The notes below the pieces were generated by a model that saw only the letters and a list, made by a program, of their open reading frames with translations, had not been told where the DNA came from and ran no database searches. A program made the position numbers and the translations under genes. Shown in pieces: positions 4,452-23,575 of a DNA stretch of 64,000 nt. Numbering within the stretch: the first letter of the stretch is position 1; every line of letters begins with the position of its first letter. This DNA is from Halorussus ruber (GTDB taxonomy: Archaea > Halobacteriota > Halobacteria > Halobacteriales > Haladaptataceae), in the NCBI RefSeq assembly GCF_004765785.1, contig NZ_SBIT01000002.1, positions 124,001 to 188,000 of the forward strand, in the 5' to 3' direction.

Positions 4452-5315
4452 CTACCGTCGGAAGCAGTCGGCGCAGTCTGAGACAAACTCCCGAAAACCC
4501 CGCGGTTCTCGACCCAGCACTCGCTCGGCGTCGTCGCTGACCCGCCCGGACAGTCCGAGGCGCGTGACGGTGTAGAGGACGACCATCACGGCAATCATCG
4601 GGTAGGGCACGCCCCGAGAGCGCATCCGGCGCGCGAACCGGAGAATCGAGGGGTTCGGGTACGAGACGGGGCGGTCGAGCGCGTCGCTGAACGCCTCGGC
4701 GACCTCGTCGCAGTCGAGGGCCTCGGGACCGGTCACGTCGTACGCGCGGTTCTCGTGACCCGGTTCGGTGAGCGCGGCGACCCCGACGGCGGCCACGTCG
4801 CGGGCGTCCACGAATCCCATCTCGCCGCCGCCCGCGGGGACGAAAATCTCGTCGTGTTCGACCACGTCGGGGCGGTGAATCTCGCTGAAGTTCTGCATGA
4901 AGTTGGCGGCCCGGAGGAAGGTGTAGGCCACGCCAGCACCTTCGAGGTGGCGCTCCATCCGGTAGTGGGGGAGTAAGGGGTTCTTGCCCGCGCCGAGAAC
5001 CGAGAGGTAGACGACGTGGCGAACGCCGACCCGCGCCGCGGCGTCCGCGAACTCCCGCAGTCGGTCGACGCCGACGTTCGGGGGGCGCACCAGAAACAGG
5101 CGGTCCACGTCCTCGAGGGCAGACCCCCACGTCTCGGGGCGCTCGAAGTCGAACTCGACGGTCTCGGAGTCGTCACCCTCTGCATTCGCATCCGTCCGTG
5201 AGGGGTTTCGGGTGGCGATTCGGACTCGGACCGAGGTCTCGGCCTCGCGGAGTTGGTCGGCGACCGCAGAGCCGACGGTGCCGGTTGCGCCGGTCACCAG
5301 CACGAGGTCGGTCAC
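4452..5315 (-). CDS. NmrA/SDR-type NAD(P)-binding reductase
   Basis: The protein is 287 residues from a GTG start at 5315, immediately before the dinucleotide-binding strand TDLVLVTGATGTVGSAVADQL. The Gly-rich motif GATGTVG is the Rossmann signature of atypical short-chain dehydrogenases and NmrA-like proteins. Other family features are RVRIATRNPSR (NADP-discriminating basic region), VYLSVLGA and the mid-region FLRAANFMQNF. The frame runs open to 5552, but the upstream residues are Arg/Pro-rich and look non-coding. Proteins of this kind are NAD(P)H-dependent quinone or NADPH-sensing reductases; the substrate is not evident. It converges on nothing and stands alone between hicBA and the AAA ATPase gene. 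Confidence 0.8.
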   Translation of the reverse strand: MTDLVLVTGATGTVGSAVADQLREAETSVRVRIATRNPSRTDANAEGDDSETVEFDFERPETWGSALEDVDRLFLVRPPNVGVDRLREFADAAARVGVRHVVYLSVLGAGKNPLLPHYRMERHLEGAGVAYTFLRAANFMQNFSEIHRPDVVEHDEIFVPAGGGEMGFVDARDVAAVGVAALTEPGHENRAYDVTGPEALDCDEVAEAFSDALDRPVSYPNPSILRFARRMRSRGVPYPMIAVMVVLYTVTRLGLSGRVSDDAERVLGREPRGFREFVSDCADCFRR

Positions 5316-5493
5316 GTTGCCCCTCCGCCGAGAGTTGCTCCCCCGCTGCGAGTCAGGACGCGCCGGGGGAGTGTGCGCCCACTCCCTGAGGACGTTTCGG
5401 TTGCGGTGGTCATTCTTCCGACCGTACACACGCCCATCGACATTTTGTAAGCCACACTCGGACACCGCGGAAGGAAAATCAAGGGGAAGACGC

Positions 5494-6885
5494 TTAGTGG
5501 TCGTGGCCGTGCCCGCCGTCGGCACTCGCGTCGGACCCCGAAATGTCACCACCGGCCACGAGCGCGTCGTGGTCGCCCTCTATCATGTCTAAATCCTTGA
5601 GGTTGTCACGCTCCTCGAAGTCCTCGATGGCGTCCACGAAGTCCTCCTGCGTGAGCGCGGTGCGCTCCTCGGTCAGGGCGTCGAGGACGGCCTCGCGCAG
5701 GACCATCCGGAGGTCGCTCCCGGTCAGACCCTCGGTCTCCTCGGCCAACTCGTCGGGGTCGAAGTCCACGATGTCCATCGGTCGGGTGATGAGCCGGAGG
5801 ATGTCGGCGCGCATCTGGACGTCCGGCTTGGGGAAGTTGACGATCTCGTCGAAGCGCCGCCACGCCGCGGCGTCGAGCTGGTCGGGGTGGTTTGTCGCGC
5901 CGATGAGGAGCACGTCGTCCTGAATCAGGCTGATGTTGTCGATGGACTTCAGCAGGGTGTTGACCGCGCGCTTGATGGCGGCGTGCTCGTCGCTGGCGCG
6001 GGTCTTGGCGACGAAGTCGAACTCGTCCATGAAGAGGATACAGGGCGAGAGGCGCTTGGCGACCTCGAAGACCTTCTCGACGTTCTTGGCGGTCTCGCCG
6101 AGGTACTGGCTGGTGATCATCGAGAGCTTGACCTCCACGAACGGCAGGTCGAGGTCGTAGGCCAGCGCCCGAGCGGTCGAGGTCTTGCCGGTCCCCGGCG
6201 GCCCGACGAACAGGAGCTTGCCGATTTCCCGCAGGCCGATTTGGGCCAGATACTCCCGATGCTCGATTGCCTTGACGATTTTGTGAATCTCGGCCTCCTG
6301 GTCCTCGGTCAGCACGAGGTCGTCCAGCGTGGTCTCGATCTCCTCGGGCGCTCGGATGTCCACGAGGTCGAGCATCTCCTCTTCCTCCTCGTCGGCGAAA
6401 TACTGGGCGAGGAGCCCGTCGATCCACGCCCGGTCGGCCTGTACCGGCCGGTTAGCGTCTCGGGCCGCCTCGTAGTCTGCGCCATCGACCTCGTCCTCGT
6501 AGGCGTAGGCCAGCACGGGATTGTGGATAACTCGCTGTTCGCCCCGGTCCAAGAACCACTCCTCGGCCATGTCCTGCTGGGTGAGTTCCAGCGACCCCGA
6601 GAACTCGTCGCGGTCCGTGAACATCAGCCCGGAGATGGCACTCCAGGGGTTCTCGACCCCGGTCGCCCGGCGTGCGGTCTCGATGGTCGGCCGAATCGGG
6701 CGCTCGATTCCCAGCGGCGAGTCGTCGCTGCCGGGTCGGTCCGGTCCCGTCGATTCGGCCGCCCCGTCGGGCCAGAACACCTGGCGGTAGCGCGGGGGAA
6801 GGTCGTTCTCGTCTAACGCTCTGTTGTCGTTGTAGAGGCTCGCGGTGAGCAGAAACTCGACGACGTCCAGTGCCGCGTCGCTCAT
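5494..6885 (-). CDS. AAA-family ATPase, CDC48/FtsH-like single domain
   Basis: The protein is 463 residues with one AAA domain: Walker A GPPGTGKT at about 228-235, Walker B ILFMDEFD at about 283-290, sensor-1 GATNHP near 329-334 and a WRRFD arginine-finger region near 342. A C-terminal helical lid follows, with TGLTGSDLRMVLREAV. The N-terminal about 190 residues have no domain I recognise and probably bind substrates or partners. The last residues are His-rich (GGHGHDH), which could bind metal but is not conserved in AAA proteins. It is a soluble ATP-driven remodelling factor; its client is unknown. A minus-strand TATA-like element (cttaag, 6912-6917) lies about 27-32 nt before the ATG. Confidence 0.85.
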   Translation of the reverse strand: MSDAALDVVEFLLTASLYNDNRALDENDLPPRYRQVFWPDGAAESTGPDRPGSDDSPLGIERPIRPTIETARRATGVENPWSAISGLMFTDRDEFSGSLELTQQDMAEEWFLDRGEQRVIHNPVLAYAYEDEVDGADYEAARDANRPVQADRAWIDGLLAQYFADEEEEEMLDLVDIRAPEEIETTLDDLVLTEDQEAEIHKIVKAIEHREYLAQIGLREIGKLLFVGPPGTGKTSTARALAYDLDLPFVEVKLSMITSQYLGETAKNVEKVFEVAKRLSPCILFMDEFDFVAKTRASDEHAAIKRAVNTLLKSIDNISLIQDDVLLIGATNHPDQLDAAAWRRFDEIVNFPKPDVQMRADILRLITRPMDIVDFDPDELAEETEGLTGSDLRMVLREAVLDALTEERTALTQEDFVDAIEDFEERDNLKDLDMIEGDHDALVAGGDISGSDASADGGHGHDH

Positions 6886-21103: not shown

Positions 21104-21202
21104 CAGGAGTAGGAAACCCGACAACGCCCCGTTATAAACCGATAACGGCTATCAGAAATCGGAGGGGCGTCGGGAATGTCGTACTACATTGACGGTTAGC
21201 TG

Positions 21203-21280
21203 CTAGGGAGTACCGTCGTTGCGAGTGGTCGGGTTCCTGTAGAGGAGGTATCCCATCGCAATCAGGGACACGGCGACTGA
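21203..21280 (-). pseudogene. 3' remnant of the membrane-protein gene split by the IS200/605 element
   Basis: Reading from the right end of the transposon, the minus strand encodes SVAVSLIAMGYLLYR (a membrane helix), then NPTTRNDGTP and TAG at 21203. There is no start of its own. The gene on the other side of the element (22971-23519) has five helices and ends exactly at the transposon edge, so this is most likely its original sixth helix and C-terminus. Confidence 0.55.
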
Positions 21281-21281
21281 C

Positions 21282-21420
21282 ATCCTCCCACGGCTAAAGC
21301 CGTGGGGTTCCCCCACTGGGGGTTGAACCCACGGAAACGGAGAGGTTCGCAGGTTCGTCGTCGCGTGGGACGATGACCTGCGTTTCGGGCTGTGCCAGTA
21401 CAGCCCCCGCCTCGGACAGC
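21282..21420 (-). ncRNA. Putative reRNA/omega-RNA scaffold at the tnpB 3' end
   Basis: TnpB proteins use a guide RNA transcribed from the 3' end of tnpB through the right end of the element. Here the tnpB stop (21294) lies inside the right-end hairpin, and a second GC-rich hairpin sits at 21309-21321, as expected for the scaffold. The guide would begin at the flanking host DNA below 21281 (minus strand gtcagtcgccgtgtcc). The 5' limit given is a guess, and transcription is inferred from the family. Confidence 0.4.
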
Positions 21421-22448
21421 GGTTTCGAGAACTTGCCCAAGGCTCGTTTGCCGATATTCAGCGCACCGTTCTTGTCCGCGTTATCGTCCAATCCACACAC
21501 GGGACACTCAAAGCGCCCTTGCGTCTCTCGGGCGCCCTCGCAGGCGCACCGATTGCACGTCTTCGACGTGTCGTATTCTTCGACCAACTGCACGCCGATA
21601 CCCGCGTCGTGGGCCTTGTACTCAATGTAGTCCAACAGGCGGGCGAACGGCATCTTGTGGGTCTTGTCGTTGACGTACCGCCCCTTGTCGTTGTCCTTGC
21701 GAATCCCGCCGAGGTCGCCCACGACGATAACCGCGTTCCGTTCTTCGGCGTCCTCTACGAGCTGGCGAGCAATCTTGTGGAGGCGGTCGTCCACCTTCCG
21801 TGCCTCGGCGTCACCGATACGCTCGACCACCTGCTGTCCCTGTCGGGCTTTGGCTTTCCCGATGGACTTGCGGAGTTGCTTGTAGTGTTCGCGGATACGA
21901 CGGACTTCCCCGCCGTAGAAGGTGGTTTTGCGGTCGGAGAGGAACACGCATGTAGCAACCCACCGTGCACCCATGTCGATAGCCAGTACGTCGTCGTACT
22001 CGTCTTGAACGGTCACAGACCGCTTGACGACGAGGTGGACGTACCAGTCACCGTCACGGCGCACTAACTCGCTGTCCCGAATGTCGCCCTCACGGATGAG
22101 TTGTTCGTCCTTGTCTGGGACGTGGGCAGGACACCAAATCGAGTTCCCCCGTCCCCGGTCTGGGTCGTAGACGGGGACTTTCATCCACCACGATGAGAGA
22201 ACGGTGTCCTCGTCGTAGGCCACGTCGAACACGTCATTGCGAAGGACGACGGGTTGGTCGGTGTCGGGGTTCGGGTCTTTCTGTCGCTGGACTTTCGACG
22301 CTTGCTGGTCGGTTGCAGAGTACAGGTCGGCGTCTCCGCCGTGTACCTCGGTCTGGAACGCCTCGTACTCACGGGCGAGCAGGTCAGCCTTCCTGTTAGT
22401 CAGCGAGTGGAGTTTGACCCGCACCGTGGTCGAGACGGTCCGTTGCAT
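21294..22448 (-). CDS. tnpB: TnpB-type RNA-guided nuclease (IS605 accessory protein)
   Basis: The protein is 384 residues. It has RuvC-I AIDMGARWVATCV (D158), a RuvC-II region AVIVVGDLGGIR (243-250), a zinc ribbon with C298/C301 and C315/C318 (CNRC, CPVC) and RuvC-III DDNADKNGALNI (D325 likely). In canonical TnpB the RuvC-II motif carries a catalytic Glu directly before Asp-Leu; here that place is Gly (G244). The enzyme may therefore use another acidic residue or be impaired. It starts 2 nt after the tnpA stop, so the two are coupled. It helps retain the element by cutting the donor site. Confidence 0.9.
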   Translation of the reverse strand: MQRTVSTTVRVKLHSLTNRKADLLAREYEAFQTEVHGGDADLYSATDQQASKVQRQKDPNPDTDQPVVLRNDVFDVAYDEDTVLSSWWMKVPVYDPDRGRGNSIWCPAHVPDKDEQLIREGDIRDSELVRRDGDWYVHLVVKRSVTVQDEYDDVLAIDMGARWVATCVFLSDRKTTFYGGEVRRIREHYKQLRKSIGKAKARQGQQVVERIGDAEARKVDDRLHKIARQLVEDAEERNAVIVVGDLGGIRKDNDKGRYVNDKTHKMPFARLLDYIEYKAHDAGIGVQLVEEYDTSKTCNRCACEGARETQGRFECPVCGLDDNADKNGALNIGKRALGKFSKPLSEAGAVLAQPETQVIVPRDDEPANLSVSVGSTPSGGTPRL

Positions 22449-22450
22449 GG

Positions 22451-22840
22451 CTACTCGCCTGCTTGGGCGTCGATGTACTCCTCAATAACCTCGCTGGATA
22501 CGTCGCCCGCACTGGAAACGAAGTACGAGCGCGTCCACAGAGACGGGAGGCCGAAGTCGAACTCGTCGCGGAGGTGGCGCGAGGAGTAGCCTTTGACCTG
22601 TTGCATTATCTTGTTCGGGGCGAGCGTCGGGTCGCCCGTGATGAACAGGTGTACGTGGTCGGGGCGAATCGCCAACTCCAAGATTTCGAGGTCGAGTTCG
22701 TCAGCCTTGTCCTCGATGAGTTCTTCAAGACGGTCGCGTGCCTCGCCCTCAAGCACCGATTTGCGGTATTTCGGGCACCAGATGAAGTGGTACTGGAGTT
22801 TGTGGACGTTGGTACGTTCCCTGTCGAATCCACGAGGCAT
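22451..22840 (-). CDS. tnpA: IS200-type Y1 transposase TnpA
   Basis: The protein is 129 residues from the ATG at 22840; an upstream in-frame GTG at 22864 would add eight residues. The HUH motif HVHLFI (H62, H64) and the catalytic tyrosine in VIEEYIDAQ (Y122) are present. The Tyr is in the C-terminal helix, as in IS200/IS605 transposases, which move single-stranded DNA. All catalytic residues are intact, so the element may still be mobile. It is followed directly by tnpB. Confidence 0.92.
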   Translation of the reverse strand: MPRGFDRERTNVHKLQYHFIWCPKYRKSVLEGEARDRLEELIEDKADELDLEILELAIRPDHVHLFITGDPTLAPNKIMQQVKGYSSRHLRDEFDFGLPSLWTRSYFVSSAGDVSSEVIEEYIDAQAGE

Positions 22841-22970
22841 CGCCAGTATATAGATATCTCTCACCTAAAGGTGTTACGCAAGCATCTACCCCCCGGCCGT
22901 GGCTACGAGCGTGGATAGATTCCCAGTTGTCGGCTTCATCCCACCCCTGAAGGAGTGGGCTTTCGCCTCA

Positions 22971-23519
22971 CTATCGCTGTAATTCGACGGTCGGAAACCA
23001 GTCCGGGACTCGCCCGTTTTTCAGGCTGACAACGTATAGCAGTATCCACGTCCCCGAGAACACGAGTAGTGGAACCCCGACGAAGCGGATGGGAGCGGGT
23101 TTCCGGAAGAACGCCAGTCCGAAAGCCCCAGTCCCCATCGTGTACGGGAGCGGACTGAGCCAGAGGAGATACGGGACTCTGGGTACCGGACGAACCAGCA
23201 GGGTCAGGAGACCGCTCACGAATAGAATCGGTGTGAGCGCCATCAGCGTGACGCCCACGGCCGCCAGCCGAGGAGCCTCGGAAGTCAGGCGGTGATAGAG
23301 GCCGAACAGAGCGACGAACGGGATTGCGAATCCGACGAGGTCGGGGAGTGCCGCAAAGAAAATAAAGCCAGCCCATCCCGGGAGTCTCGCCGGGGTCGTG
23401 AACCCGACGAAATCCGGAAAAGTCCGGATTAGCGACTGAATCGAGAGGTATCCGCCCGCAATCAGGAGGAGCGTCCCGGTTTTTTCTTCGAGCAACTCTC
23501 GTAGTTCCAAGCGAATCAT
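22971..23519 (-). CDS. Membrane protein, C-terminus cut off by the IS element
   Basis: The present open frame encodes 182 residues with five predicted membrane helices (for example GTLLLIAGGYLSIQSLI, VTLMALTPILFVSGLLTLLV and GVPLLVFSGTWILLYVV). It ends ...DWFPTVELQR with TAG at the very edge of the transposon. The sequence across the element (21203-21280) encodes one further helix in the same strand sense. The shortened protein may fold but would lose the last helix. I recognise no family. It has an ordinary haloarchaeal N-terminus with a clear ATG. Confidence 0.7.
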   Translation of the reverse strand: MIRLELRELLEEKTGTLLLIAGGYLSIQSLIRTFPDFVGFTTPARLPGWAGFIFFAALPDLVGFAIPFVALFGLYHRLTSEAPRLAAVGVTLMALTPILFVSGLLTLLVRPVPRVPYLLWLSPLPYTMGTGAFGLAFFRKPAPIRFVGVPLLVFSGTWILLYVVSLKNGRVPDWFPTVELQR

Positions 23520-23575
23520 CGTCAGTACTGTCCGACTACTATCCGTCGCTACATGTTAATCTTATTAATACAAAC

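What the first reader, a model, noticed from the sequence alone, without database searches (positions are those of the whole stretch)
21203..23519. IS200/605 insertion splits a six-helix membrane-protein gene
The gene at 22971-23519 ends exactly at the left edge of the transposon after five helices. Across the element the minus strand resumes with SVAVSLIAMGYLLYR, a good sixth helix, and a stop at 21203. Removing 21281-22970 would nearly restore one frame. With intact TnpA catalytic residues this may be a recent insertion.
Basis: partly seen in the sequence, partly recalled or inferred. Interest (0 to 1): 0.5.

Follow-up and report, generated by a model that had tools for sequence, protein, structure and literature searches.

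The report
Transposon-split membrane-protein gene
A small jumping gene has landed cleanly inside a salt-loving archaeon's gene for a membrane protein, cutting off what is probably its last helix; this is a well-resolved but ordinary insertion of a known kind of element.

Summary
The finding holds, with sharper edges. An IS200/IS605 element (tnpA + tnpB, ISHhu3-like) occupies 21277-22978 (1702 bp, minus strand), directly 3' of TTAC. It interrupts a gene for a ~205-residue membrane protein of no Pfam family, probably six helices (weak model). All 7 full-length orthologues found (6 among the 28 family genomes, 1 elsewhere among 392 order genomes) continue past the break with the window's 21203-21276 peptide; none ends at ELQR. 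TTAC itself is at the site in 2 of the 7. At DNA level the two window flanks abut exactly in an uninterrupted relative, so they form one frame, not "nearly" one; the stop of the 182-aa ORF is made by element bases. TnpA has its HUH and Tyr residues; target and presumed guide tetranucleotides follow the IS608 scheme (TTAC/AAAG left; TCAG/GAAC right). The host gene shows no decay, so the insertion looks recent, but it is undated and no strain without it was seen. No second copy of the gene was found in this genome. Side points: TnpB has Gly at the canonical RuvC-II Glu place; its 3' end resembles Rfam HgcC below cut-off. Ordinary; low interest.

The parts
22979..23519 (-). 5' 180 codons plus one base of the interrupted membrane-protein gene (helices 1-5)
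   Evidence: 59-69% identical to 7 full-length orthologues; 0 of 59 columns invariant in the other seven deviates
22979..22982 (-). target TTAC (reads GTAA on +), retained at the left flank
   Evidence: TTAC precedes 6 of the 6 copies whose left end aligns from its first base; present at the uninterrupted site in 2 of 7 orthologues, L010 and L012; the other 5 have TTGC, CTGC or CTCC there
21277..22978 (-). IS200/IS605 element, 1702 bp, ISHhu3-like
   Evidence: boundaries from uninterrupted relatives and from other copies
22940..22959 (-). left-end hairpin (CCCACTCC-TTCA-GGGGTGGG), with AAAG directly 5' of it (22960-22963)
   Evidence: coordinates; fold, z only -1.2; AAAG compared with the IS608 left guide (PMC5934647 passages)
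22451..22840 (-). tnpA, Y1/HUH transposase (129 aa from ATG; ORF open to a GTG at 22864)
   Evidence: PF01797 3.9e-38, NF033573 8.2e-42, ISHp608 transposase chain 2a6m 2.2e-27; 390-base length as in annotated homologues
21294..22448 (-). tnpB (384 aa), RNA-guided endonuclease family; Gly at the canonical RuvC-II Glu position
   Evidence: NF040570 149.5 bits, cut-off 100; PF07282 5.4e-18; alignment to PDB chain 8j3r
21287..21306 (-). right-end hairpin (CCCACGGC-TTTA-GCCGTGGG), GAAC directly 5' of it (21307-21310), TCAG at the element's end (21277-21280)
   Evidence: (z -2.05); comparison with the IS608 right end in PMC5934647 (passages)
21266..21408 (-). sub-threshold Rfam HgcC match over the tnpB 3' end, right end and first flank bases: presumed TnpB guide RNA (inference)
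   Evidence: 40.2 bits against gathering 50, E 4.9e-7; same in L030, L031, L032
21203..21276 (-). 3' end of the interrupted gene: most of the predicted helix 6, tail and stop 21203-21205
   Evidence: 12-18 of 24 residues identical to the 7 orthologues; window 21192-21276 is 80% identical to L109 over 87 bases

Best explanation
A complete ISHhu3-like IS200/IS605 element inserted, by single-strand peel-and-paste transposition, 3' of a TTAC inside a Halorussus accessory gene for a roughly 205-residue membrane protein with about six predicted helices. The insertion removes most of helix 6 and the tail from the product; translation now ends at a stop supplied by the element, giving a 182-residue protein. 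Shown: site, boundaries, orthologue tails, no target duplication. Inferred: mechanism (by family), recent age, loss of function of the truncated protein.
For: 7 of 7 full-length orthologues continue through the break in one frame. Window 22979-23521 and 21192-21276 abut at L109 5233|5234. Element ends AGCG..GTCAG; TTAC before 6 of 6 copies aligned at the left end. TnpA and TnpB identified by Pfam, NCBIfam and PDB comparison. dN/dS 0.04-0.06 (tnpA, 6 pairs) and 0.07-0.15 (tnpB, 10 pairs) between copies, which come from Halorussus and, for some, Halorubrum and Halobacterium. Left end TTAC with AAAG as in IS608. One place only in this genome encodes the protein at E <= 0.001.
Against: No strain of the same species without the insertion was available; relatives are only 59-69% identical in protein. 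TTAC is at the site in only 2 of 7 orthologues. The remaining 180 residues show no relaxation of constraint, which a still-functional truncated form would also explain. The window's tail is 24 residues against 26-27 in relatives. The left-end hairpin fold is weak in the window copy (z -1.2).
Confidence: 0.96

Rival explanations
1. The 182-aa ORF is the complete natural gene and the element merely lies downstream; the peptide at 21203-21276 is chance.
For: The ORF is open and ends with a stop codon.
Against: Its last 8 bases, stop included, are element bases; 7 of 7 full-length orthologues carry the tail; the flanks abut in a relative.
Confidence: 0.01
2. The insertion is old and tolerated: the truncated product has been kept as a functional, shortened protein.
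For: 0 of 59 invariant columns deviates in the remaining 180 residues; no stop or frameshift in them.
Against: The unused tail is not decayed either: 80% DNA identity to L109 against 76% for the 5' part; 1 of 9 invariant tail columns deviates, as in 2 of the 7 others. A long-standing truncation should have let the tail drift, though 24 codons give little power.
Confidence: 0.15
3. The insertion acts as a reversible switch: precise excision restores the longer gene in part of the population.
For: The flanks are exact and tnpA and both ends look intact; precise donor sealing is described for IS608 (PMC5934647 passages).
Against: No polymorphism data; precise excision is a general property of the family and does not show regulation.
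Confidence: 0.03

Closest known systems
ISHhu3-family element of Halobacterium hubeiense pSTJ001 (NZ_LN831303.1)
   Same: tnpA then tnpB on one strand, 89.5% DNA identity over bases 20-1702, same right end
   Different: Its first 19 bases do not align and no TTAC was seen there; 89.5% is below the identity usually asked for the same IS name (threshold recalled)
IS608 (Helicobacter pylori)
   Same: Inserts 3' of TTAC; left guide AAAG 5' of a hairpin; HUH/Tyr TnpA; tnpB (PMC5934647 passages)
   Different: Right end TCAG with GAAC here instead of TCAA with GAAT; gene order and strands differ (IS608 arrangement recalled)
ISDra2 TnpB (Deinococcus radiodurans)
   Same: RNA-guided TnpB whose guide would be the flank next to the target site (PMC8612924 passages)
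   Different: TTGAT instead of TTAC; canonical RuvC-II Glu (recalled) where this subfamily has Gly
TnpB as a gene drive of IS200/605 elements in plasmids
   Same: Proposed use of TnpB against copies without the insertion (PMC11870625, preprint, passages)
   Different: Shown there for bacterial plasmids; here only a speculation for a haloarchaeal chromosome
Hypothetical proteins of Halorussus limi, Halomicrococcus gelatinilyticus and Halorussus aquaticus plasmids
   Same: Uninterrupted orthologues, 624-base CDS including stop
   Different: 207 residues with the tail; different gene neighbours in each record

Membership tests
IS200/IS605 insertion sequence | Y1/HUH TnpA | tested here: met
   PF01797 3.9e-38, NF033573 142.4 bits against cut-off 55; HVH and the Tyr of EEYIDAQ align with 2ec2
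IS200/IS605 insertion sequence | TnpB (optional partner) | tested here: met
   NF040570 149.5 bits against cut-off 100
IS200/IS605 insertion sequence | Insertion 3' of a short fixed target without target duplication | tested here: met
   TTAC in 6 of 6 left-aligned copies, a seventh copy not alignable at the left end; flanks abut in a relative
IS200/IS605 insertion sequence | Subterminal hairpins with guide tetranucleotides | tested here: met
   Hairpins at both ends; AAAG and GAAC read from sequence; left-end fold z only -1.2 in the window copy, -2.5 in L030
IS200/IS605 insertion sequence | Single-strand transposition activity | not testable with these tools
   needs bench work
Active RNA-guided TnpB nuclease | RuvC Asp-Glu-Asp at canonical places | tested here: not met
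   Gly at the RuvC-II Glu place in 6 of 6 copies read; an invariant Glu before YDTSKTC might substitute (recalled from work on rearranged sites, not seen in a paper here)
Rfam HgcC | Score over the gathering cut-off | tested here: not met
   40.2 bits against 50

The most novel reading that the evidence does not exclude
The TnpB of this element, with a relocated RuvC glutamate, takes its guide from the interrupted gene's tail and cuts uninterrupted alleles, driving the insertion through all chromosome copies of a polyploid haloarchaeon (polyploidy recalled) and keeping the gene broken.
Probability: 0.1. Interest if true: 0.4.

Novelty: new member of a known kind. Interest (0 to 1): 0.17.

Why it matters
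It corrects the reading of a gene that would otherwise be listed as a complete 182-residue protein, and gives a base-exact insertion site with an uninterrupted comparison for an ISHhu3-like element. Otherwise it is ordinary genome dynamics. Modest by-products: HgcC-like sequence at the right end of a TnpB element, and a TnpB subfamily that is conserved without the canonical RuvC-II glutamate.

Tried and rejected
Pfam and NCBIfam gave no family for the membrane protein; scanning the 8 aligned members gave two families, each in 1 of 8 members at E 0.06-0.07, taken as chance. An AlphaFold2 model of orthologue L010 has helices 2-40, 49-79, 83-109, 116-121 plus 123-138 (taken as one, broken), 143-168 and 177-192, so six, but mean pLDDT is 56; no fold search was run on it. 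Hydropathy alone passed its cut-off at only 3 to 6 segments per protein (3 in the truncated window protein), so 'six helices' rests on pooling orthologues and a weak model. Dating by copy identity failed: the best full-length other copies in 28 family genomes are 91% and 89%. Gene neighbours are not shared: between window 12-34 kb and 7 orthologue regions of 11 kb only the gene itself aligned at DNA level, E <= 1e-10. HgcC as a TnpB RNA was looked at in 45 loci given to a script, of 53 matches (17 + 36): in the window's genome 7 of 15 loci hold a tnpB-like ORF on the same strand as the match and 0 of 15 on the other; in the phylum sample 7 of 30 same strand, 10 of 30 opposite strand, 13 of 30 none; some of these ORFs lie near the match rather than over it, and no control was run. 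The contig-1 copy of the element did not ring for HgcC at E <= 0.01 (4 of 5 sources did) but did, at 25.4 bits. So the link is suggestive only. A literature point on rearranged RuvC sites could not be read.

Full report
What is there. On the minus strand the window holds an ORF of 182 codons (23519-22971), an IS200/IS605 element with tnpA (22840-22451, open to 22864) and tnpB (22448-21294), and then a short peptide ending at a stop at 21205-21203. The window lies in a 4.3 Mb genome of 31 contigs. Two genomes given as the same genus have contigs whose lengths (414603, 404376) equal those of Halorussus limi and Halorussus aquaticus plasmid records, so by inference this is a Halorussus.

Orthologues. 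The 182-aa product was searched in 28 genomes of the family (10 with a match, the window's own included) and in 392 of the order, family included (14 with a match, own included). Outside the window these are seven full-length orthologues (G021, G017, G010, G012, G020, G024 and, outside the family, G203), matches to fragments in two genomes (G005, G007; G007 also has a second, weak match) and four distant relatives (G019, G117, G288, G359). In 7 of 7 full-length orthologues the frame runs on through the counterpart of ELLAVSLIAMGYLLY and stops 26-27 residues after the position of the break, giving 204-209 residues; the window's own flank has 24 residues. The G005 fragment and the distant relatives in G019 and G359 also align into the tail. 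Three orthologues are annotated in plasmid records as hypothetical proteins with 624-base CDS.

Boundaries. Blast of window DNA to 11-kb regions around the seven orthologues gave, for L109, window 22979-23521 on 5234-5776 and window 21192-21276 on 5147-5233: the two pieces abut. The limit 21276 is also found in L110 and L114; the other four regions gave only the 5' piece. The element is therefore 21277-22978, 1702 bases. Seven copies were compared. Six align from the element's first base (window, G022, G025, the internally deleted copy on contig 1 of this genome, Halorubrum ezzemoulense, Natribaculum longum) and 6 of 6 are preceded by TTAC; the seventh (Halobacterium hubeiense) aligns only from base 20 and shows no TTAC there. 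Six of seven reach base 1702 and end in GATGTCAG; Natribaculum longum aligns only to 1684. TTAC is at the uninterrupted site in 2 of 7 orthologues (L010, L012); the other five have TTGC, CTGC or CTCC, so it is host sequence and not brought by the element. No target duplication is seen.

Element. TnpA is a Y1 transposase, related to the ISHp608 transposase in the PDB. TnpB exceeds the NCBIfam cut-off for RNA-guided TnpB. Passages of PMC5934647 give for IS608: left cleavage site TTAC with guide AAAG, right site TCAA with guide GAAT, guides 5' of the hairpins. Read from the sequence, this element has TTAC with AAAG, and TCAG with GAAC: on the right the fourth base of site and guide have both changed in a way that would keep a pair; which bases pair in the complex is recalled. 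Hairpins fold at both ends, weakly at the left in the window copy (z -1.2, against -2.5 in L030; right -2.05 and -2.6). Full-length copies at 91% and 89% occur in G022 and G025, and similar ones in plasmids of other haloarchaeal genera (29 plasmid records with a match, 10 with at least 80% of the query), one annotated as ISHhu3 family. Between copies dN/dS is 0.04-0.06 for tnpA (6 pairs; read in 4 of the 6 copies tried) and 0.07-0.15 for tnpB (10 pairs; the Natribaculum copy, of another length, was left out).

Age and effect. Of 59 columns invariant in the other seven proteins, none deviates in the window's first 180 residues (for the others left out in turn: 0 to 2 deviations for five, 8 for the two most distant); in the tail 1 of 9 does, as in 2 of the 7 others. 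DNA identity to L109 is 80% in the tail (87 bases) and 76% in the 5' part. Neither part has visibly decayed, which fits a recent insertion; a still-useful truncated protein is not excluded, and no strain without the element was seen. One place only in this genome encodes the protein. The protein loses most of the predicted sixth helix; the six-helix count rests on a model of low confidence (mean pLDDT 56) and pooled hydropathy.

Side observations. In 6 of 6 TnpB copies read, the place of the canonical RuvC-II Glu is Gly (VVGDL); it aligns with the Glu of PDB chain 8j3r, which I recall to be a Cas12f1; a Glu directly before YDTSKTC is invariant in the six. I recall work on TnpB with rearranged catalytic sites but could not read it (not held; one search found none, one search listed one crop-editing review). 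Rfam HgcC matches the right end below its cut-off, its model position 117 falling on the element's last base in L030. PMC4247193 (passages) already reports that three of five expressed HgcC RNAs of Thermococcus kodakarensis come from within transposase genes, two not; PMC5732400 (passages) calls the function unresolved in 2017. One search of the held library found no paper with both HgcC and TnpB. Haloarchaeal TnpB guide RNAs as such are known (PMC12558985, passages).

Verdict. The finding is right and its stated test is passed; the element is a new member of a known kind in an accessory gene of unknown function, and interest is low.

Noticed in passing
window 21266-21408 (-); L030, L031, L032: Rfam HgcC (archaeal RNA of unresolved function) matches the tnpB 3' end plus right end, below its cut-off; in this genome 7 of 15 HgcC-like loci checked hold a tnpB-like ORF on the same strand. 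HgcC may in part be TnpB guide RNA; no control was run.
   Followed up: partly
window 21294-22448 (-), and copies in L030, L031, L119, L120, L121: TnpB subfamily with Gly instead of the canonical RuvC-II Glu in 6 of 6 copies, otherwise conserved; an invariant Glu lies before YDTSKTC.
   Followed up: partly
G000 contig 1, 485764-487117 (L046): Second, 86% identical copy in this genome with an internal tnpB deletion and an early stop in tnpB; TTAC-flanked and apparently decaying.
   Followed up: partly
L032 (G010:C1 around 1897660-1897985): A related element's left end, preceded by TTAC, abuts a 281-base tnpB 3' fragment in the opposite orientation: looks like one element inserted into another's tnpB.
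   Followed up: no
G005:C1:143452-143694 (L016) and G007:C1:1581830-1581925 (L018): Fragments of the same membrane-protein gene in relatives, suggesting an accessory gene that is often lost.
   Followed up: partly
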